Assembly (NCBI GenBank): GCA_000727475.1
Contig: KL647325.1
Location: 361,719 to 425,718, forward strand
Direction of reading: 5' to 3'
Length of the DNA stretch: 64,000 nt
Source of the DNA: Sarcocystis neurona
Lineage: Eukaryota; Apicomplexa; Conoidasida; Eucoccidiorida; Sarcocystidae
The position numbers were made by a program, and so were the translations under genes. The notes beneath the pieces were generated by a model. It was given only the letters and a program-made list of their open reading frames with translations. It had not been told where the DNA came from and made no database searches. Shown here one piece after another: positions 12,246 to 56,288 of the stretch (position 1 is the first letter of the stretch; every line of letters starts with the position of its first letter).

Positions 12246-12494
12246 ACTGAACAGGGGCACGAGCAGCAGGAGCATTCTCCGAGCAGGTGTTGCATGTGAC
12301 TGGACACGCAGCAGCAAAAAATGCGTGACATATCTTTTCTCGGTCTGACCCGTCCCTCTGCGGTCTGTGTTTACCCGAGTGTTGCGGCGGGTGTTTGCAG
12401 ACGGACAGTTGTGGGCGAGACACTGAGGAAAGGATACTCGGGTGCATCAGAAGGGAACAACAGCGAAGACATATTTATTAGCGGACGGTTAAAA

Positions 12495-15400
12495 ATGACC
12501 CGCCGCATCGGCAGCTGCAGCGGCAGCAAACTCTTTGCTTCACGCGTGCTGTTAACCAGCTGCTTCTTCAAACCTCCTCCCTGGACCGCGAGTTCTCTTC
12601 TCTCGCGGCGAGCTGCTTCTTCTTTTCATCCTTCCCCTACTAGTTTTTCTTCTTCCGGTTCTTCTGTGTCTGCCTCCATCTTCTTTGCTTCTGCTTCTAC
12701 ACATCGACGCGAAGCTCTCCTACAACAGACTCTGCCACCGCACTTTTTCTTCCTTTCTTCGTTCGACCCGTCCCCTCCTCATCCTGCTTCTTGTTGGTCG
12801 TTTGCTGCGGGCAGTTTTCCGTATGCACTCCAGCGGTCTCTCTCTCCTTCTTATATGTCACGTACTGGCACTGCGTCTGCTCCCTTCTGTTCCGCTCCGT
12901 CTCTTTCCGCTGCTGCTGCCTCCCCTACTGCGGCTTTCTCTCTTCCTCCTGCTGCCGCGCCTGCCACCCGTGCTGCACGTTCTTGTGCTACCGCTTCCGC
13001 TTACCCTGCTGGTGTCACTGGTTCTCTCGATGATTCTGCTGCCATCGGTGCGCTGGCTGAACAGCAGAAGAAAGTCGAAGGAGAAGCAGCAGATGCCGCT
13101 GTGTCTACAACTCTCTTCCAGTACACAGGTAAACTGAGAAAACAGATATTTTCGTCGATTGTGCCGGCCGCAGCAGCTGCGTCAGCGATCTCTTCCGCTG
13201 GAGCAAACGGGAGAAAGAGCCAACTTTGTAGGAACAGACCTGTGAAATACGTCCTACATCAAATGCATCTACATACACGTACGCACATGCGTGCACGTTT
13301 GTGTGTGTCCCTATATATATATATACATAGATAGATAGATATTTAGACGTCTCTATACACTGGTATAGCTATGTGTAAATTTATGTAAAGGTGTTTAGGC
13401 GTGTATATACAATCGTTTGTTAATATGACAGATTCATCTGCGGGGTGAATATTTCTCAATTCGTGTGTACATAAATGTGGCTCCACATTCGTATATGCAC
13501 AAGCCAATAAAGTACAGGTCCGTTCACGTGTACTAAATAGTCGTACTTTTCTTTAGTAGATTCAATCAGTAATATGATAGACAAAATAAGAAGTTGAAGC
13601 TTTCTTACGTTCACACATACAAAATACGTGTGACTGCGAGAATATATATATATATATATATATAAATATGTGACTCTTCTGTAGGTCTTCATGTAATTGG
13701 TACATAGAACTACGGTCGAGCTGCGTGCAGTTCTCTGGAAAGATATATATGTATATGTATATATGTATATGGCTATTTGAGTGTAATTAACCATATGCAT
13801 CCATAACTCGAAGTGGTGACACGTGGAATCTCGGGGTTCGTTATTCTTTTTGGTATCTTCCGTTGTGTAGCAGGTGTCTCACTGCGGAATCACGGCGCCG
13901 CACAAATTGCTCAATATTGTCCCGTATACATATGTAAATGCATACATATGTATACACTGCATTTGTACAGGCAAAGGTACATATATATATATATACACGT
14001 GACGCACGCATCTGTTCGCGTATCTGTAGCCACACACACATAACTCTACACCTCTGTGTGTATTTGTCTGTACAAGTGTACAGATGTGTGCCTCATACAC
14101 TACCGTATACACGTATATAGAAATATGCACATGTGTGTATAGACAGATACACACGTGCAGGTGAGGTAGCGAAATTAGTAGTTGTGTGGAAGTGGGAACT
14201 ACTTCAAGTTAGAAGCTACGCGCCGTATACGTCCTCGTGTGTGTCTGGCATTTGCGTCTACGTGCAGTGACCCGAAGAGGCGTGCGTCGCAGAGTCCTCT
14301 TTTCGTCTCCCCTCTCTCTCCGTCTCTGAGAAAATGCACCACGCGATGTGTGGCGACACAACACACGTCATATCTGGTGTGGGGACATTCTACCTGTGTG
14401 CACATGTATGTATCCAAAAAGCTGTTCGCGTGTATCTGCCTTTACGTGTGGGTGGATTGTTGTAGATACCGAAGGAAAATTCATTTGCAAGCGGTGTGTC
14501 GTCTCAGTCGCTATGTGCGTGTATCTGTCCCTGTGTACATACTCATTTCTGCGAAGCACTCTCTCTCTTCCTGTGTCTATGTGTGGCTGTAAACGCACAG
14601 CGGTACATGCATCAGCATGTATACAAATGTTGTGTCTCGTTCTTTGTGGCTGAGAGTCTGAAGGTGTGTATGCACGCAGGTACATACGCATTAAAGTAAG
14701 TGTATGGAAGTTATGTGTATATATATATATAAGTGTATGTGTAGAAGTACATGGGTATATAACGTGTACGTAAGTGTTTACAAAAACGGTGCACAGATTA
14801 TCTCACTGGGTGCTTGTGTGGTTCTCTCTCGCTTCTCTCTTTGTACACATGTAAATGACGACGGCGGCATAGAGAAATCTAGTCCCAGATAAGTTTCTGT
14901 AAAATTCGTTCAGATTTCTGTTTCCACTTCTTTTCAGTCTGCGCGTACTGCACAAGCGTCCGGGAGGTGCTGCGCTTTTTTCGCCATCCCTACCGCGCCG
15001 TGGAGGTAAACAGAAACGATATGTAGGTGTGTAGGTGTGTACAACGTGCACAGAGAGGAAGGAAAAGCAAGAAAGAGGTATACGTTTATACTCGAGTGCA
15101 CACCTGTAAAAATGCACAGCAAGGGAGGAAGACGAAGACGGAAGATACATATACATATATATATATGTATGTATATATGTCTATAAACGTACGTAAAGAG
15201 AGAAACAGGAAAGCGAAAGGCCGACATCAATATATATATGTATATATGTAGAGAGAAGGAGCCAACTGAGGACGTGTACATATACACATGAGTGCGTGTA
15301 TGTGAACATATATATATATACACACTATATATATGTGTATGTACGTGTTGGGGGAGTGCGAGAGACATACACACATCGGCGCATACATATACGTGTGTGT

Positions 15401-18400
15401 GTGTATATCTAAAGTGTATATATCGAGCTGCATATGTGCGCGTATATATGTTTTGAATTGTTGAATAAATCCCCATGTGTTACTACGTACGCCTGTGCCT
15501 ACACGTACATATATGTATGCATATATGTATGTGTATACGTACTTGAATAAAGGGGAATGTCGAGTTTGTAGACCAGTGTTTACAGGTACGTGCAGAAGTG
15601 TGTGGGCGTCTGTGGACGCATATATATATATATATGTGTAGACGCACGTGTATACATGTGTACATTCTAGAATGACGAAATAGAGACGTAAAGAATTCCT
15701 CTGTCGTGCTGTGTGGAAAAAATTGGGTGAGACAACGAGTTGTCTTCCTACCCTGAATGTGTGTGTGCCAGATTGATGTATCACGACGTATGCCTACTCA
15801 TGTTCAAGGGCGCACATGTACGAAGCGGTTTTCTTCTCGCCCGTGAATCACATATATATATATATATACATACATATATGAAAAGGGTATACGCTGTTGA
15901 ATAATGTACATCCATGTGTGTACATATCTATTAAATACATGTATGTGTGTATATATATATGACACGAGAGACAGAGAGAGATAGTCTGTTGAACAAAGTA
16001 CACCTATGTGTAGGCATGTCTATGAGATGTCCCGAACTTCTATCTCAGTTTGTGCGGGAGCGTTTAAATGATATACGTATGTCCGTGTTTAGAGAGAACT
16101 CAAGTGTCAAGTTGCATGCGTATAGACGCGTGTACGTGCATCTTAAAAGGAGTTGTCTCCTGACAATTATCAAGTGAACACGCGTACGTACTTACGAGAT
16201 ATGTATGTTCATCCGCAATCTGTAAGTATATATATATATATCTGGCGGGAAATCATACGACAAGCTGATAACAAATTATACCTGTGTATATGCGTGTTTT
16301 CTCTCTCTCTCTACATATATATGTGTATGTATATATATATATATGTATAAGGCTACAAATACCTGACACACATACATGTACAGATATATGTTTATACATA
16401 CGAGTAGAATCTCTTTCTGGAGAGTACACAATTTTCGCGACGCATATAGATATATTCATATATATATATGTAAATTTGGAGAGAACTCGAGTTCCTCGAT
16501 ACACATATACGTACATATATACACATGTATGGGTATATATATCTCCACACATAATCAGAAGCGTCTACATATCAAATTACGCGTATGTGCGAGCATGTTG
16601 CCTATATATATATATATATATATGTATAAATAAGGCTATAAATACCGACACACATATATGCACTGAATGTGTATCTTCGGAGGCTTCAACAGCCATATAT
16701 GCACATCTGTATGTAAGACTTTATAATAATTCAAGTGCCCTTTTATATCTTTGGTACTGTCTCTCTCCTATATGTATATATATATATATAGGTGAGAGGT
16801 GTGCAAAACGAAGAGAGCAAAAGTACAAGTAACGTTTAAAAAAGTTTTGATAATTACGATCTCTGCTATACGTCTACAACTGAGTGTACTGCAAACGACC
16901 ACAAGACTCTCCGGTGGGTCGTTATAGAAAGGTTTGTAAATATATCTCCCCACATATATGTATATATATGCGTACGTACATGTCTCCCATATACAAATGT
17001 AAGTAGGTCGATAGACAGATACATTTAAAGGTATACGCTTTCCCACATCAAGAAATTTTGAGACGCGTGAGTGTAGGCGTACTTGTTTGTGAAGCTCCGC
17101 TGAAAAGGTCGTTGTAGGGTAAGCAACGAAAATTCTTCAGACACACGCACATGCGAACACACCCACTTCTCTTTAGTTGCACGAAAGTGCTGCTTTGCTT
17201 GGACGGCTGTGCTGCAGGTGAGCCCTTTCGGGAAGAAGGAGCTTTCTGTACTTCCTGACAAAGCCTACCGCAAAGTGCCTATTGCGTTGATTGAAGGCGA
17301 GCAAGTGAGAATTCTCCACATGTCCGAAGAGCAAAACGAAAAGGACAGAAAAGAAAACAGGAAGTGCAAGAAATACAAAATGACTGCAAAGCACGTGGTT
17401 CTGCCATGCTCCGTTCCGTGCCCTTTTTTGCTGCTGGCACTTTTTTTTATTGTTGGATCTCTCCATGCGTCTTCAGAGTTCTTCATGCGACTTGCGCTCC
17501 GACTTGTCCTCTGTCTTACTGCCTATATCTACTTTCCTCTCTCTGCACACGCTTTCTCTGTTTCGTGCTTGCGGCTTCTCTCAGTAACTTTTTCTTCCGC
17601 GCATGCACTCTGTTTTCCTTCCAGGCGACTTCGTCGACTGCCGTCAGACACTTAAACTTTCCTAACGTGCGGTCCTCCCTTTCCACTCGTGCATTCCGCA
17701 TTCATTCCGCGTCTCTTTTGCATTTTACGCGTGTTTCCGTTTTTTTGTCGGCCCGGGGTGTAAGAACAAAAAGTGACTGGACGCGAACGCGCTGTGGAAG
17801 TGCCTGTCTTGTTCCGCAGGCGCCAGTGCAGCAAGGGTGAGAGCGGTACCTGCATACACTTACATATATACATGTACGTAGTATCTGTATATGTATATAT
17901 AAGTGCGTCTATATATGCGCAAGTCTAGTAATGTGCATGAATATTGGCTTATGATGTCAAACTCTGCACAAACAGGACGTGCGAAGAAGAGCAGTTGTGG
18001 CCGCTAAGCGGGTACGACCGTATTGCACACAGGCGTCGCTGCAATCTCGAACGTCTCCAGCATCCTTCGGTACCCCAAGAGATATTTAAATCTAAAAAAA
18101 GCAGCATCCACACGAGCGAGTATCCTTATGATATATATATATATATATGTGCATGGTTAAGTGTACCTCGAGTAGGCAGCCGACGTCCTATTCGTAGAGA
18201 TAGACGTGCCTACACCATGAGCGAACTGGCACGCAGAGAACAGCATCTCTTTCTAGAGGGCACGCGCACACCTGCATCTGCTGAACGGTGTTGCACACGT
18301 ATATTAATTTGTGTGTGTATACGCTTTTATACGTGCATAGTCCGCAGGGCTTCACACACGCTCAAGCGTACACCTTTTACTAGTATGTAAAAACACCACT

Positions 18401-32419: not shown

Positions 32420-33341
32420 TCATCGAGTAGCCGAGGCGTCAGGTGTAACGATGGACTCACATTCCACTTCTACTAAGTCCTCTACTGTTAATGCAGGACC
32501 TAGGCTCTCACGCTCTTTCAGAGAGGCGCAGACTCGCATGTTGTTCTCGCTCGTGTATGTATACCCAGTCAACGCCAAGAGGTAAGTAGTGTGGTAAATT
32601 CGTTCTTTCTCCTCCCGCCCAACTGGGCGCGTTATCCGACAAAGGATTGAATTGTGGTCGACAGGCAACTTCTCTGATTTCGCTTCCCCACGCAACGCTA
32701 CTGTCAGGTTGCTTTATTCAGTGTATGTTTGTGATTCCACTTATTCGGAATGAAGACGGTAGTGCAACTAGCGTCTCCACTCTACTTGTCCTGTGTGTAC
32801 TTACTTTGCATGCTGCGCAGTACTTTTGGTCGTAAATCACTAGTTTCACGCTGCCGGTCTGATCGGCTACGAGGAATTCATAGATAGTCAACAGGCCGTC
32901 GTCCTCATCTTCGCCCTTCGCACCGCGCAGAGGCAAACCACTGTTTCCGATGTTCAGAACCGTACCGGAACTACCAGTTGAATATGTGCAAAGCGACGGA
33001 GAAGAGAGCGAGGGCTGGTCAGTAGAAGGGGAGAAAGAGAAGGGAAATGGATTAGCGGAGACGGCGGAAAAAGGATGCAGCGGTCGGGTGCTTGCTATAA
33101 GTAGGCGCAGAACGCGGACTAGACAGTTCACATTGTGTTGGCCAGGCTGCACCACTGCAACAGGAATAAAGAATGACGGCAATGAGAAAATTCCCTCAGA
33201 AGAATTCGAAGTACTTTCTATGTCAAGTTTCGTGTGCGGATGTTTCCGTTGCGCAGACCTCCTTGGTGGGTCCTCCATGTCAGGTTTGACACGATCGTCT
33301 ACATCCGAAGTTTTCTTTGACAACCCTTCCATTGCTGTCAT
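32420..33341 (-). CDS. OB-fold nucleic-acid-binding protein (SOSS-B / plant At4g28440-like), two exons
   Basis: Exons 33341-32805 and 32608-32420 join in phase 0 (TGCAAA|GTAAGT, GGAG|AAAG) to give 241 residues. The OB domain starts FFIPVAVVQPGQHNVNCLV, continues YEFLVADQTGSVKLVIYD, and after the intron has LLALTGYTYTSENNMRVCAS and GPALTVEDLVEVE before the stop. The 'LVADQTGSVKL' strand pair is the hallmark LVGDETG-type segment of this family, and MRVCAS fits the MRLAV strand. These proteins bind single-stranded DNA or RNA through the OB barrel. About 75 Ser/Pro/Gly-rich residues interrupt the barrel between its first and second strands. About 70 charged residues precede the domain. Met codons at 33341 and 33332 are both possible starts. 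The second acceptor lacks a clear pyrimidine tract, so that border is uncertain by a few codons. Confidence 0.6.
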
Positions 33342-33439
33342 CCCAGTTCCCCCTTTACCTGCGACTCCCTCCACTTCGGCACCACCCCGCACACGACAGC
33401 TCACACGCTGTGACGTTCGGGCCCTTACACACTTGCCAG

Positions 33440-33835
33440 AACGTCACGAAAAATACGTGCGTTTTTCAAGACTCTATCCAGCGTCTTTTTTTGGAGACTT
33501 ATGCACACTATGGTACAAACACATCTGGAAGGCACTGCGTCCTTTCCTTCCCTGGGGAGCGGGGACTTTTTCGCCACAAGACGCGCACAGGCGAGACGAA
33601 TACGGTGCCGTTTCTGGGAGCAATATTCGGTGCTGCGGTGGGAATCGAATGTGTGTGTGCGTCTGCTTCGGCCTTGCCGGGTAGTTCACTGGAAGACGGT
33701 GCCAGATGGGTGAAATTGCGGGATGGAGGTTTTGAGCTTTCCGATGTTTGTATTTCCAAGCTTTTAAGCAAGGAGAGGGACCCTGACATACGCAGAAAAT
33801 TCAGTGATGTTTCAGAAGTCAGAGGAGACGATTAG
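33440..33835 (+). CDS. Candidate terminal exon, family unknown
   Basis: An acceptor CTTGCCAG|AAC is followed by 131 open codons to TAG. The frame contains RLFLETYAHYGTNTSG, a small hydrophobic segment VPFLGAIFGAAVGIECV, and a charged end (LLSKERDPDIRRKFSDVSE). Against it, no upstream exon was found, and the minus strand is also open here with an ATG at 33789 (MSGSLSLLKSLE), which could instead be a 5' exon of the OB-fold gene. Confidence 0.28.
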   Translation, partial: NVTKNTCVFQDSIQRLFLETYAHYGTNTSGRHCVLSFPGERGLFRHKTRTGETNTVPFLGAIFGAAVGIECVCASASALPGSSLEDGARWVKLRDGGFELSDVCISKLLSKERDPDIRRKFSDVSEVRGDD

Positions 33836-48943: not shown

Positions 48944-50978
48944 ATGGAGTCGACGCGTGTTTCTTTCCCTCTTGTCTCGTCTCGGCCTGCACACATGTCT
49001 CCTGCCATCTCCCAAGCCTTTGCATCTTCCTCTTCTACTCCAAGCAGCAGACATGTGACTGCAGCCTCGACAGGTAGCAACAACACGAGCCAAAATCCAT
49101 CGCCTGCCGCAGTGGCGTCTACTGTTTGCGGACCGTCACCCTTCCATATGAATTTCTCTTCTTCTTCTCTGCCGTCCGCCGACTACCCCGCACCTCTCGA
49201 CTCCCCCTTCGCTGTCCCTACTCCGTCCACGGCTGCTTCTTCCTTCCCGTCGTCCGCTGCTTCATCTTCTAATCAGTTGACCACACCAGCCGCTGCTCCT
49301 GCTTATCCGTCTCAACCGCCTGCTTCTGAGGCCGCCTGTCCACTCCCAAGCTCTGCCGCTCCACACCAGTCTGCTGCGGGTTTCTCAGCTGTCGCTGCGC
49401 CTGCTTTCTCGACTGCTGCTGCAGCTGCTTTCCACCTCCCTGCAGGCGCTCCTCCTACAGCTGCCGTTGCTGCTAATCCGCCAGTACCAGCCACAGCTGC
49501 TTCACAGACACCGTCTCGTGCCGCTGCTACAACACGCCTGGGTGCGGTTCCTGCTGCTGCAGCTTCATCTGCTTCTGCCTCGACTGCTAATGGTGCTGGT
49601 AGTATCTCGGCGGCCACTCCTGCCGCAGCAGATGCTGTTTCCTCTACACCACAGCCCCCACTGCGTGCTACTGCTGCTGCTGTTTCCTCACCTACTGCAA
49701 CTCCTGCAGCACCCGCCGTTCTAGTCGTGTTGTCATGTGAGCAGCAGCTAACCGCACCGTCTTCGACTGACTTCTCTTCTTCGCCAGAAACCAGCTATTC
49801 TTCCATTTCCTCTTCCTCTTCTTCATCCTGTACCGTATCATCTTCTGGGCGTCGCTGCGTCCAGGGCGGCGGTGGGCGCGCAGTCGAGTCTGCTGACTTT
49901 CTGGCGGAAGCTGGTGTTTCTCTCCCCTCTTTGTTAACAATTCACCACGTGTTTGAAAACACAGGGATTTCGTATCGTATAGCAACGCCTACAGGGCATC
50001 CGCCAGCTGTGTCAAATGTAAGCGCAGCCCCCGCCGCTGCTGCTATTGCTGCGGCATCCGCTGGAGCGGCTTCTGCCGCTGTAGCAGCAGCGCTCGAAAA
50101 AAGTGTGCCTGCGGCTCTCTACGAGCAGCTGCTCCATCCCCTGCCGCTGCGCAGCGTGAAACTTAACGAGTTCCAAGGCCTGCTGTTGCCGCACCACCTC
50201 GGGGCTGCCCTTGACCTGCTGCATAGCGCCGCGCTGGCGAAGCTCGTTGCTGCCGCCCTGCCGCCTCTTCGCAACTGGGCCAGCAATAAGAAATCCTCTT
50301 TTTCAGCACGAGGCTGCGGTAGCAGCGGAAAAGAGAAAAAAAATCCTTTAATTGTCTGCGCTGTTGGATACGGCGCCTTTGCCCTCTGTGCGAAACGCCT
50401 CCCTGCTGCCAGTGCTGCCTCCGCTACCGCAGCGGACCTTCCAGAGAGAGAAGAAGCGGCAGCCGCACCCCATCGCTGGGGATGGACTGCAGATGGTACG
50501 TGCCGTTATCCTTGTCTTCCTATCTTTTGTGTCATTCTTCGCTTTCCCTATCTAACGTTTCGCGCATAGAAGAGTAGGAAGCGTCACTTGCGCAATGTAT
50601 CTATAGAGTGCTGGGTCCTGCCTTTGGAAGTGCCAGAAGCATGTAACAGCAGCGCACGTGCTTCTGTAGTCATTTGTCCAACTTTGTGTTCTCTTTTCAC
50701 ACACGTGTATGTGTGGGTACTTGTATCCGTACATAATCGGTGATGCAGACGAGTATCAACTGCAACACACGGGTACATGCTCGCGCACCTGTACATATAT
50801 AAACCACGTATTGTTGTACAAAGCTTCTGATTGATTTCTGTCTGGTGTACGTCTAGATGGAGAAGCTGTCACGTTTGATATGCATGCCCAGATACGCTTC
50901 TGCAAATCTAGACAACGATATATAGGAAAGCCTACATGCGTACCGATATCCCTATCTTAATGTCACCCTACGTCTCCC

Positions 50979-51011
<33 letters not shown>

Positions 51012-54000
51012 CTTTTAAATATTATGCCTGTCTGTGGTTTGACGGTGAACAGCATCGAGATGCAGGAGGCAAGCAGTACCCTCACGTAGCTGAAAACTAC
51101 GCACTTACCTGTCGCAGCCACAGGCACTACGACGCACGCCTATATACGCGCACGCCTGTACATACGTAAGGTGGGGAAATGGATCGATGGATTTCAATGG
51201 TATATACATATATATATGTAAAATGTATTGCATGTGTGAGCAGCACTATGACTGAAGTGTTCATGCCAAGGTTCTGTTTTCCGACTACACTGGTGCCTTC
51301 CTACCTTCCGTCTCTCTCTATTTTTTGAAGTGTACAAGCAAGCAGACGCACATGTATATACGTATATATATGTGTATACGTGTGTGTGTCCGTATATAGT
51401 CACCCTGATGCTCTGCCGATGACGACGTACACATATATATACGTAAAAGAGCGACGGTCCGGTTGCCGTCTCTCCCTCTCTCCATCTTTAGTGTTGACCT
51501 TCGATTCTTTTGCTGCAACAACACATTTGCTGTTTGTTGGCTGCGTCTGCGGATGCATCTGCAAGGAAATATAAAAGTGTCCATGAGTAACTGTAGCTCC
51601 ACTCGTAGAAGCACAGGCGTCGACACCTTTTCGATTTCGGTGTTTAACTTTGTTGCCATTTCGTTGCCCGCTTCTTCCAACATCCATCCGTACGCAGACG
51701 TTGACAAGTGTGTACACAGGTGCGTCTATATATTGTGGGAGCAGTTGCCGCGCTGTTGCTTGTGTGGCTATCTCTGCCTTTCCGCCTGCGGGGACTTCCT
51801 TTCCTGTGCACCTTCCTTCGGGAGTTCCACCACTACGTATGCGGTTGTATATTTGTCTTGACCTTCGCAAGTACACACACACGTATTTATACGTGTATGT
51901 GTGTATGTATGCGTCTTGCTTTCGCTAGTCCCACCACTGCATAGGCGGTTGTATACTTTTGTCTTGACCTTCGCAAGTAGACATACACGTATTTGAATGC
52001 ATGAGTATATATACGTGTATATGCGCGCCTTGCTTTTGTGTCCAGTTTCGGTTCCTTCTGGTGCTGCTGTGCTTCCCCTTGTGCAGCAGCGACACCAGCG
52101 TCCGAGTCTCCTTTCGAAGGGTACGTGCTTACGAGTGTAAGTCCGTTCGACGAGTGTCGGTATCCTTTTTTTGGACAGTTGCCCTACATGCTGCAGGAAC
52201 TGCTAGAAGATAATGGAGCTTCCTTCGTCTCTTTTTCTCGGTCGTTGGATTCTCCTGCCTGCGTCATCGATAGAAATGTTGTGACAGGTCCTAGCGAAGC
52301 CAGCACGCAGGTGTGTCTGCAGGTGTTCGCCCTACTGCTCCTCAATGCTGCTGCTGCTGCGGCAACTGATCGAGCCGCTGCTGCTGCTGGGACCCCTGCC
52401 GTTGCGGGTGCCGGTGCCTCTGAAGCAACGGTGCACGCTGCTGCTGCCAGTGCCGCTGCTTCTGTCCAGACGGTTGCAGTTGCTGCGGTAGAGGCGGCCG
52501 CAGAAGAGCGCCAGCACCAGCTGCTGCTGCTGCAGCAGCGACAGCAACAACAAAGGCAACAGATGCAGCACCCACCCGTAGAACAACACCATCTTGTCCA
52601 CCAGCAGCCAGGGACACACCAGCGGCACCTCCAGCAGCAACTTCCGAAGCAGCAGGAAAAACTTGTGCAGGACCAGCTGCAGCCGTGGAAACCTGTGCAG
52701 CAGCAGCAACTGCAGCCCTTGCAACTGCAACAACAGGCCTCGCAGCAGCAACAGCCCCTGCAGCAGCAGCACCTCGCACCCCAGCAGCAGCAACTCACAC
52801 AGCAGCAGCAGCTCCTGCCTCAGCAGCACGAGGTCGCGAAAGACCAACAGCAACTCTCGGAGCTGCAGCAACCCTTTCAGCAGTCGCCTGCGCAACAGCC
52901 GCACCACCATTCCCTGCAACAACAACAGCGGCAAACGCTGGAGCGGAATAATCGAGAAAAAGATTTTGAAAGAGGAGTTCTTCGTGTGAGTCAAGGGGCT
53001 GCGGGGATTGCTGTCGAAAGCAGTAGACATACTTCTGTTACAGTTGCGTCCACCTCTGGTGTAGCACCGGCTGCCACATCAGCACTGTCACTTGCACCCG
53101 CTGAAGTAGCAGCACTGCCAAATCCACCAGAAACAGGGGTATCACCAAGAGTCAGTAAAATCTGTAGTGCAGAAGGCGGTGTTGCCGGGGAACTATTTGC
53201 CGTCCGGGTGCCCACTGCTAACACTGGTGTCACGGAGGAGATTCACCCAGAAGCAGATAGATATTTACGTTCCTCGACACCGGTGCGTGCCGGTATCTCA
53301 CCTCCGACACTAGCACAGACATCCTTCCAAGGCAGTGAGGAAAGCAGTCCATTGCAGAATGTGCGTAATGCCGACGCAGAGCGGCAAGCTGGTGCGTCTT
53401 CTGCAGGTGATCCGTATTCTGCTGCTGGTAGTGTTGCGGTCGAACGTCCTGGTGGGGATGGCGCCGCCGCACGCGCCGCTGGTGATGCTATTGGCAGTTG
53501 TTCTAGCCCTCCTTGTGCTCTTGTAGTAGGTGCTGCTGTGCGCGCACCTACTACTGATGCTGGGAATGCAGCGACTAACGAAGGCGCGCCGTTTAACAGT
53601 GACATTGCATGCACTGCTAGTACTGCCGCAACACCTGCTACTATGAGGCTCGGCGGGGCTGCAGGTGGTTGCAGCAGCAGTCGAAGCCAGAGTAACCCGA
53701 GCGTAGGTGAACTCAACTCAGTGACGAACGCTGCCATCCAGCGTTCACCTGCGGAGGCGGGGGCTCGCAGCAGCTGCGGGAGCAGCGAAGGGGGTGGTTT
53801 CTTACCAGTAGAGCGTACAGCAGCTGCCGCAGACAGTTACCAAGTGGTTTCACGCGCATGTGTCGAGGGCACCAACAGCGAGAGGGAGAGCGCCAGAGGG
53901 AGGGAAGACGCTTGCAGCAGCACCACGAGCAGCGCACGTACATCTGCGCGTTGGAACCCCTTTGAAGAGCGTGAGGATGCTGCAGAAGAGACGGCGTCCG

Positions 54001-56288
54001 CGATTCCGGTTACTCTCCATTTGTCTGATACTACCGCCGCCACCAGTAATGCTGCTGCTGTTGCCTACGCTCCTATGGCTGGTGCTGATGCTCGTGATGC
54101 AGCAGCTGCTGCTGTAGGTAAGGAGAAATTTAGCAGGGTGGCTCTGTCAAGCAGGCCAGAAAACAAAGCAGCGGCTAGCCACTTGTGGTCCTCATCTCGG
54201 TACACTAGGAGCAGTCATATCAGCGGTAGCGGCTTCGGTACAGGCACGACTATCACCAGTGGGGCCAACAGTAGTGGCAGGACCAGCGACAGCACTAGCA
54301 CATGTAATCCAGGTAGAAAACGGGAAGGGATGTTCGAGGAAGGCGAAGAACCTTTTAACGAGAGGGCAAGAAAGGCGGCAGCAGCTGCAGCAAGCGGACA
54401 ACAGCAAAGCGTCTCCCACACTCCTTGCCAGAAGCCGGAGCACACACAGGAAGGAACGAAGCACGAAGGCAATTTGCACGCAGAGGACGTACGAGGGCAC
54501 GTGCCATTTGAAGGCTGGATAGACAGCACAGGCAATTCCAACAAGACTGCTCCAGTCATTTCTCCTGGTCATCTTGCTCCACGCAGAAACTTTCAGCTCC
54601 ATACGACACGGGGGGACGAGGAATGGGATTACACAGCGGATCCTGAAAATGCTCTGAAGACGTGCAGCGCTGCTTCTGACGCAGTTGCTACTGCTGGTAC
54701 TAAGTGCACAGGTCCAACTGCTTTGGACGCTGCTGCTGGCGCTGCAGCTGCCCGTGCACGTGGTGTCGACTCAGGTGATAGTGTTGCTGCTCCGGGCGGC
54801 AGTGCTGCTGCTGTTCACTGTGCGCACACCGCAGCTGACGATGAGACAGAAACTGGTGTTGCCCGTGCAGAAGCTAACTTTGAAATGGCTGCTGATGCCC
54901 CTGCGCAATCTGGGGATGCTGGGTGGCCGGTGTCTACTGCACTCCACAGACTCGATATTGGCACAGGAGGTGGCACGGTGTTGAAGGCAGCGTGCAGTGT
55001 GCAGCAGTCAAGTAAGGCGTTCTACTCTTTAAATGAGACGGGAGAATCTTCTCCACGGAAAGTCGAGCATTTCGCCGATGTAGAGTATTCTTCTGTAGCT
55101 GGGAGCACTGAACGTGACTCGTACTGGTCGAGGCCGAAGTGGCAGCAGCAGCAGCACAGCATTCGCGCTGGTACTGCGGCCGGCACTCCGTTCAATGCTG
55201 CCACGTCGCAGGCGGTTGCACACGAATGTGCAGCTACTTCTGCAACTTCTGTTCTTGATGTCGCTGCTGGTGGTGCTTCTCATATTTCTGGGACGTCTGG
55301 CGGTGTGAAAACTGCTGTTGGTAGCGACGGAACTAGCCCAGGCATGGCACCAGGATGCCAGGCTTCCGGCTCAACAAAAAGGGTTTTGGCAGGAATAGAC
55401 GAGCAAATAAAGTATGCAGACGAGACCAGGAGAAGCACTTATGAGCTTAACAGTGTAGACGCACCGTCACTACGGTCGACAGATGGTGCAAATAGCGCGT
55501 TCGTTGGTTTGCTGCCGCAACATGATGACGGGGCATCGGTGGCAGCTGAATTGTCAATGACGCGCAGTTCAGCCCTGCACCAACGGGAAAGACAAGTGCA
55601 GCAGCTGCATCACCAGGAGGAGGAGCAGCAGGAAGAACAGCAGCTGGTGCAACGAGATCAGCTGCAGGAACACCGGTTAGGGGTTGCTGACGAACGAAAG
55701 TGCCACAGAAGTCTAAGCACTTCTTCGAAAACAAGTGCCAATGAGTCGGTTTATCCACGTCGAACAGATCATATCACACGCGTATCAGAGGGGGAATCAG
55801 GTGTGGGTCTACCAGAGTTACCGCGCGTACGACCAACAGAACAGCACGGAACACCAGCGGAACAGGGAATGTTTGACAGTCAGGAAGATGATGAATTTGG
55901 TAACTTCGTAGCGAATCCCGGAGCTGTCCCAGTTGACAACGAAATGCTGTCTCTTGCAGGAGCAGCAGCACCAGGAAGTGGCGGTTTTGCCTCTCTTGTC
56001 GATATGAACGACGCAGGAACTGCGGACTCAGCAGTAGGAGCGGATTCAACGCCGGCCCCTGCCAGATGCGATGCAGTGACTGTGGCGGAGTGTCGTAGTG
56101 GATACACTGCTGGGAAAACAGCTGTCATGTTTGAGGGCTTTTCAAGCGGCAAAACATACTGCAACAATACTGAAAGCCGTCGTCACTCCGTCTCACCCCG
56201 AGGAACGTATGACGGACAACAACTTATAGGCCCTTCATCTGCCGAACAGGAGCCGTTCAGCAGAAGTGACTGGTTTCAGTGGCAGTGA
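48944..56288 (+). CDS. GATD1-like protein (DJ-1/PfpI, class I glutamine amidotransferase-like fold) with a giant low-complexity tail
   Basis: Exons 48944-50495 and 52120-56288 join in phase 1 (GATG|GTACGT, CGAAG|GG) to about 1906 residues. Core pieces match human GATD1 in order: PAVLVVLSCEQQ (about 255), HHVFENTGISYRIATPTG (330), NEFQGLLLPHHLGAALDLL (405), NPLIVCAVGYGAFALC with the nucleophile-elbow Cys (472), then across the intron ADGYVLTSVSPFDE, PYMLQELLEDNGASFVSF, VIDRNVVTGPSEAST and FALLLLNA. About 250 Ala/Ser/Pro-rich residues precede the core and about 70 Ser/Gly-rich residues interrupt it after strand 1. Beyond about 600 there are roughly 1300 residues of Ala runs, a Gln-rich block (650-790), and Ser/Gly/Thr/Ala-rich sequence, all in one open exon. 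GATD1 function is poorly known, so none is assigned. The start is the first ATG in frame; 48995 is an alternative. The core match is firm, the N-terminus less so. Confidence 0.82.
50496..52119 (+). other. Single intron of the GATD1-like gene
   Basis: 1624 bases, starting GTACGT and ending CTCCTTTCGAAG. It contains TA runs (50975-51010) and a roughly 104-bp tandem duplication near its 3' end. Splicing here gives W-G-W-T-A-D-G-Y-V-L-T, which aligns without gap to the family, so no exon is missing. Confidence 0.8.
51826..52043. repeat. Tandem duplication of about 104-115 bp in the GATD1-like intron
   Basis: Copy 1 (about 51826-51928) and copy 2 (about 51929-52043) share CCACCACT, GCGGTTGTATA, TTGTCTTGACCTTCGCAAGT, a CACACGTATTT run and a CTTGCTTT end. 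The copies differ by substitutions and microsatellite length. Confidence 0.75.
52500..52960 (+). repeat. Coding CAG tract (poly-Gln block) in the GATD1-like gene
   Basis: CAG and CAA codons make up most of this segment, interspersed with CTG, CAC and CCG, and are translated as Gln/Leu/His-rich sequence. The antisense frames (Cys- or Leu-rich, up to 232 codons) are shadows. The tract directly follows poly-Ala runs coded by GCT and GCC. Confidence 0.85.

What the first reader, a model, noticed from the sequence alone, without database searches (positions are those of the whole stretch)
48944..56288. GATD1-like enzyme-fold protein carrying a ~1300-residue Gln/Ala/Ser tail
A small single-domain protein (about 220 residues in human) is here spread over about 1900 residues, with low-complexity DNA at the N-terminus, inside the core after the first strand, and as a continuous 1300-codon tail. 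The tail is a single uninterrupted exon with the last core strands at its start, so it is a true fusion. The core keeps the elbow Cys (VCAVGYG). I know of no described GATD1 protein with such an extension.
Basis: partly seen in the sequence, partly recalled or inferred. Interest (0 to 1): 0.75.

Follow-up and report, generated by a model that had tools for sequence, protein, structure and literature searches.

The report
GATD1-like protein with disordered tail
A coccidian parasite carries a relative of the human endosomal protein GATD1 that has kept the small folded core, lacks the catalytic cysteine and has a very long low-complexity tail; similar padding occurs elsewhere in this genome, so the gene looks like a lineage variant and not a new kind of system.

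Summary
A two-exon gene (48944-50495, 52087-56288) encodes about 1917 residues. The core matches human GATD1 (8a3p, E 8.5e-7); a vertebrate GATD1 profile finds only exon 2 among 6159 ORFs. The last core strands and a 1314-codon tail share one open frame; simulated sequence gives at most 455 codons.

The Cys of VCAVGYG lies three residues upstream; the nucleophile position is Gly here, in human GATD1 and in 119 of 120 listed GATD1 hits (elbow not found in the other). This looks like a pseudoenzyme. Human GATD1 is a subunit of FERRY, a Rab5 effector complex.

The tail follows the style of this genome: other long Ala/Ser-rich frames exist, and a Ras-type GTPase carries about 500 such residues. 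Six PF[N/E/S] sites, one NPF and one EFGNF hint at endocytic-adaptor binding; the hint is post hoc and weak after correction. No tailed relative was found, but the searches could miss one. PPP1R21 and TBCK were not detected; FERRY3 and CRYZL1 remain untested.

The parts
48944..50495 (+). exon 1: N-terminal low-complexity region and first part of the GATD1 core (residues 1-517 plus first base of codon 518)
   Evidence: residues 251-517 align to the N half of a vertebrate GATD1 (P0001) with z 6.6, 0 of 1000 shuffles as high
48944..49693 (+). N-terminal Ser/Ala/Pro-rich region, residues 1-250
49715..49735 (+). first core strand AVLVVLS (residues 258-264), placed by position before the insert
   Evidence: alignment (with low-complexity stretches left out); placement inferred
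49739..49900 (+). Ser-rich insert after the first strand (about residues 266-319)
   Evidence: read from the sequence
50138..50248 (+). conserved core block PLPLRSV...GLLLPHHLGAALDLLHSAALAKLV (residues 399-435)
   Evidence: low score on its own (3.4 bits)
50357..50374 (+). nucleophile-elbow segment CAVGYG (residues 472-477); Gly475 (50366-50368) stands at the nucleophile position, not the Cys
50496..52086 (+). intron, GT-AG, 1591 bases, tandem CAG|CAG acceptor
   Evidence: inferred, no RNA
52087..56288 (+). exon 2: last core strands and the whole tail, stop codon included
52113..52337 (+). C-terminal part of the GATD1 core (residues 527-601)
   Evidence: E 3.2e-8 for this ORF, the only hit of the vertebrate GATD1 profile among 6159 ORFs
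52344..56285 (+). tail, residues 604-1917, low complexity
52497..52919 (+). Gln-rich stretch of the tail (about residues 655-795, limits by eye)
53955..53963 (+). NPF (residues 1141-1143), candidate EH-domain ligand
   Evidence: 3.8% of shuffles as high
55893..55907 (+). EFGNF (residues 1787-1791), candidate adaptor-ear ligand
   Evidence: 0.38% of shuffles for [DE]FGxF; 1.8% for a looser pattern; fails a stricter recalled pattern

Best explanation
The core is a DJ-1-type fold without the catalytic nucleophile. It most likely works as a protein-binding scaffold, as human GATD1 does in four copies in the endosomal FERRY complex. The loops and both ends have been padded by low-complexity sequence, as in other open frames of this genome. 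Most of the tail is probably a weakly constrained disordered linker; a few PF/acidic islands may bind endocytic adaptors. Shown by sequence: family, Gly at the nucleophile position, core end and tail in one frame, similar padding elsewhere in the genome. Inferred: splicing, scaffold role, endosomal place, disorder of the tail, any tail function.
For: Core to human GATD1 8a3p E 8.5e-7 and 7nd2 chain E E 1.2e-6; the two other hits up to E 10 are at 0.22 and 3.1. Profile from 12 of 120 listed GATD1 hits: one hit in 6159 ORFs, exon 2, E 3.2e-8. Exon 1 against the N half z 6.6, exon 2 against the C half z 18.0; the mismatched halves give z 0.5 and 1.3. A single match to the exon-2 core piece in the own genome. 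FERRY membership and ratio 1:2:1:2:4 (TBCK, PPP1R21, FERRY3, CRYZL1, GATD1) from passages of PMC11928052. Other padded frames.
Against: No Pfam family up to E 1 for the spliced core, exon 1 or exon 2. The exon-1 half is weak in sequence (profile domain 3.4 bits in the spliced protein; exon 1 alone not hit at E up to 10 in the 6159-ORF search). Structure models of the two half-domains are poor (mean pLDDT 40.1 and 56.6). FERRY partners: KLRAQ no match, PPP1R21_helical E 0.396 below the cut-off, TBC and rhodanese matches never on one contig; FERRY3 was asked for eight times without answer, CRYZL1 was not searched. So the endosomal role rests on the human protein alone.
Confidence: 0.62

Rival explanations
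1. The tail is a selected endocytic-adaptor platform: the GATD1 core multimerises and the tail presents PF, NPF and acidic-Phe motifs to EH and adaptor-ear domains, tying an endosomal scaffold to vesicle coats.
For: PF 7 against 1.4 expected, PF[NESD] 6 against 0.37, [DE]FGxF in 0.38% of shuffles. In 18 other long frames (11,035 residues, not verified as genes) PF is as expected (22 against 20.3, summed), PF[NESD] occurs 3 times and [DE]FG.F never. The DNA pattern for PF is frame-specific in the tail: 7 in the coding frame, 3 and 1 in the other two. Acidic residues around Phe 17.7% against 11.1%, p 0.001. EH domains (3 matches) and adaptor-ear domains (2 matches) exist in the genome. A passage of PMC10105704 reports NPF motifs in apicomplexan AGFG.
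Against: Patterns were chosen after reading the sequence. PF as a dipeptide has p 7.5e-4 among 400 dipeptides, about 0.3 after correction, behind QQ and AA; in residues 801-1917 it ranks fifth. NPF occurs once. No FxDxF, DP[FW], clathrin box, PWxxW or strict ear motif; WxxF, Yxx-hydrophobic and dileucine counts are as in shuffles (patterns recalled). Conservation could not be tested.
Confidence: 0.17
2. The core is an active DJ-1/PfpI hydrolase or glyoxalase and the tail only places it.
For: 1u9c, Hsp31 and DJ-1 homolog D appear as relatives of human GATD1; that some of these are active enzymes is recalled.
Against: Nucleophile position is Gly here and in 119 of 120 listed GATD1 hits, and the following His is Tyr here.
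Confidence: 0.03
3. The gene model is wrong: the tail, or part of it, is a separate gene or a retained intron.
For: No transcript data; parts of the tail are simple repeats in which frames stay open more easily.
Against: One frame is open for 1427 codons from before the conserved core end, simulated maximum 455, and the other five frames carry stops in all seven windows.
Confidence: 0.08

Closest known systems
Human GATD1 (PDDC1), subunit of the FERRY Rab5 effector complex (PDB 8a3p, 7nd2 chain E)
   Same: Same order of conserved blocks (L-x-S-[IV] block, CAVG-x-G, DR-x-x-VTG); Gly at the nucleophile position
   Different: 220 residues against about 1917; no N-terminal region, loop inserts or tail; His of VGHG is Tyr here
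DJ-1/PfpI superfamily members with Cys at the elbow (1u9c, DJ-1 homolog D; Hsp31 also listed)
   Same: Related by sequence to human GATD1
   Different: The elbow Cys is Gly here; the alignment was seen for 1u9c and DJ-1 homolog D, not for Hsp31
Low-complexity padded proteins of coccidia (Eimeria homopolymer repeats; Ras-type GTPase of this genome in L001)
   Same: Ala/Ser-rich extension of a small conserved domain in L001; CAG repeats coding for homopolymers in Eimeria (passage of PMC8785600)
   Different: Different core; in L001 the padding seen lies mainly before the P-loop
Apicomplexan AGFG (KIC7 of Plasmodium) with NPF motifs
   Same: NPF in a parasite protein (passage of PMC10105704)
   Different: No relation to GATD1 is known to me; the paper counts it among endocytic-complex proteins, which is untested for the window protein

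Membership tests
GATD1 family | Significant sequence match to GATD1 above other DJ-1 relatives | tested here: met
   8a3p E 8.5e-7, 7nd2 E 1.2e-6, next hit 0.22; profile E 3.2e-8
GATD1 family | Gly in place of the nucleophile Cys (C-A-[VI]-G-x-G) | tested here: met
   window VCAVGYG; Gly in 119 of 120 listed hits, elbow pattern not found in the other
GATD1 family | Compact size of about 220 residues | tested here: not met
   about 1917 residues; I do not take size as a defining feature of descent
catalytic DJ-1/PfpI enzyme | Cys nucleophile at the elbow | tested here: not met
FERRY complex subunit | Presence of partner subunits in the genome | tested here: inconclusive
   KLRAQ none, PPP1R21_helical E 0.396 below cut-off, TBC 30 and rhodanese 2 matches, none on a shared contig; FERRY3 did not complete, CRYZL1 not searched. 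Exon-by-exon search in a genome with introns can miss them
FERRY complex subunit | Several copies bound to PPP1R21 on Rab5 endosomes | not testable with these tools
   needs protein experiments
NPF/ear-motif endocytic adaptor | Motif enrichment beyond chance after correction | tested here: inconclusive

The most novel reading that the evidence does not exclude
Coccidia have fused a non-catalytic, multimerising GATD1 core to a long disordered tail with spaced PF[N/E], NPF and EFGNF ligands, making a one-protein bridge between an endosomal scaffold and EH/adaptor-ear coats that replaces parts of the FERRY complex.
Probability: 0.1. Interest if true: 0.6.

Novelty: new variant of a known kind. 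Interest (0 to 1): 0.33.

Why it matters
If the tail is functional, it would be a lead to endosomal scaffolding in coccidia, where the uptake of host material is under study. Even if the tail is neutral, the gene places a GATD1-type protein in a parasite genome in which searches for PPP1R21 domains and for a TBC-rhodanese pair found no convincing match, which asks what GATD1 does there.

Tried and rejected
Protein search with exon 2 over its whole length: the 7985 candidates sharing most words were scored, none at E up to 0.01; I suppose the words were swamped by simple repeats. Search with the core part of exon 2 among proteins of about 550-1750 residues: 47 candidates, none. So tailed relatives in other coccidia are neither shown nor excluded; I had no coccidian genome other than the window's own to compare.

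Half-domain structure predictions from A3 and A4 were poor and were not used for a fold search.

PPP1R21_helical match at L029 (E 0.396) was looked at and set aside as not significant. Other open frames of the window: 10 scanned against Pfam, one weak hit below the cut-off; two compared with solved structures, none.

Literature: one search is the only search that named parasites beside GATD1/PDDC1; it was swamped (11,610 papers with two of five terms; the 15 listed have no occurrence of GATD1 or PDDC1), so it does not show absence. Searches looked for GATD1 and FERRY in general; I saw their listings only. The two original FERRY papers are not held. Searches gave no genome paper of Sarcocystis neurona.

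Full report
What is there. The window lies in a genome of 123 Mb in 74 contigs; size and sequence style suggest Sarcocystis neurona, which is recall and not a tool result. On the plus strand an open frame begins at ATG 48944, runs to donor 50496 and continues from acceptor 52087 to the stop ending at 56288, giving 1917 residues. The acceptor is a tandem CAG|CAG, so 1916 residues is as possible. One search lists many formally possible joins; I chose this one by its splice signals and by homology. No RNA was at hand.

Core. The spliced core finds human GATD1 in the PDB (8a3p E 8.5e-7, 7nd2 chain E 1.2e-6); the only other hits up to E 10 are at 0.22 and 3.1. A profile from 12 of the 120 listed GATD1 hits finds one ORF among 6159 from the window and the loci held then: exon 2, E 3.2e-8. 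Exon 1 alone is not found by that search at E up to 10. In a shuffle test against P0001 (a mammalian GATD1) residues 251-517 score 72 against a mean of 36.0 (z 6.6, 0 of 1000) with the N half, and the first 103 residues of exon 2 score 106 against 25.1 (z 18.0, 0 of 1000) with the C half; crossed halves give z 0.5 and 1.3; residues 1-250 against the N half give z 2.7 (18 of 1000), and the tail against the whole protein gives z 0.1 (85 of 200). Pfam gives no family up to E 1 for the core, exon 1 or exon 2. The exon-2 core piece has one match in the whole genome, itself. Folding the two halves apart gave poor models.

Not an enzyme by sequence. Human GATD1 aligns with 1u9c and DJ-1 homolog D so that the Cys of their VCHG/ICHG elbow faces Gly of VGHG. 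That the elbow Cys is the nucleophile in those relatives is recalled knowledge.

What GATD1 does. Passages of PMC11928052 state that FERRY holds TBCK, PPP1R21, FERRY3, CRYZL1 and GATD1 in the ratio 1:2:1:2:4 and that PPP1R21 binds active Rab5. I infer a scaffold role for the window protein. In the same genome KLRAQ of PPP1R21 has no match, PPP1R21_helical has one at E 0.396, below the cut-off, TBC has 30 matches and rhodanese 2 at E up to 0.1, none on a shared contig. FERRY3 could not be searched and CRYZL1 was not tried. Since the search goes exon by exon, absence is weak evidence.

Tail. Residues 604-1917 are 16.2% Ala, 10.9% Ser, 8.4% Gly, 8.3% Gln. The open frame of 1427 codons compares with maxima of 331 and 455 in 300 simulated sequences each of order 1 and 2. 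Such frames are not rare here: in 20 sampled stretches of 10 kb, one of which is all N, there are frames of 1846 and 1061 codons, both Ala/Ser-rich (not verified as genes). In L001 a Ras-type GTPase (GEASVGKS, DTAG, NKVD) follows about 500 Ala/Ser/Pro-rich residues in the same frame. A passage of PMC8785600 reports CAG repeats coding for homopolymers in Eimeria. The plain reading is padding of a kind that occurs elsewhere in this genome.

Motif hint. PF occurs 7 times against 1.4 in shuffles, PF[NESD] 6 against 0.37, NPF once (3.8% of shuffles), [DE]FGxF once (0.38%). In 18 other long frames (11,035 residues; pieces with N dropped; not verified as genes) PF occurs 22 times against 20.3 expected, PF[NESD] 3 times, NPF once and [DE]FG.F never (sums mine). 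In the tail DNA the six-base pattern for PF lies 7 times in the coding frame, 3 and 1 times in the other two, and 8 times on the other strand in all. Acidic residues around Phe are 17.7% against 11.1%, p 0.001. Against this: the patterns were picked after reading; PF has p 7.5e-4 among 400 dipeptides, behind QQ and AA, and ranks fifth in residues 801-1917; FxDxF, DP[FW], clathrin box, PWxxW and the strict ear motif are absent, and WxxF, Yxx-hydrophobic and dileucine counts are as in shuffles (motif patterns recalled). The genome has EH domains (3 matches, two in one frame of 1259 residues) and ear domains (2 matches), and a passage of PMC10105704 reports NPF motifs in apicomplexan AGFG. I rate an adaptor function at 0.17.

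Verdict.

Noticed in passing
L001:1-2355 (G000:C13:109959-113312): Ras-superfamily GTPase motifs (GEASVGKS, DTAG, NKVD) after about 500 Ala/Ser/Pro-rich residues in one open frame; the frame also holds one NPF.
   Followed up: partly
L019:1298-6835 minus; L018:5101-8283 plus: Open frames of 1846 and 1061 codons, Ala/Ser-rich, not identified.
   Followed up: no
window 52084-52089: Tandem CAG|CAG splice acceptor that would add or drop one residue.
   Followed up: no
window 50979-51009: TA microsatellite (15.5 copies) inside the intron.
   Followed up: no
window 12300-13331: 344-codon open frame, Ser/Ala-rich; no Pfam or PDB match.
   Followed up: partly
window 17104-17652: Weak match to DUF2162 (E 0.0036, 17.2 bits, below the curated cut-off of 34.4), likely chance.
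   Followed up: no
window 32721-33443 minus: 241-codon open frame with YEFLVADQTGSVKLVIYDQ, which reminded me of an OB-fold; no Pfam or PDB match.
   Followed up: partly
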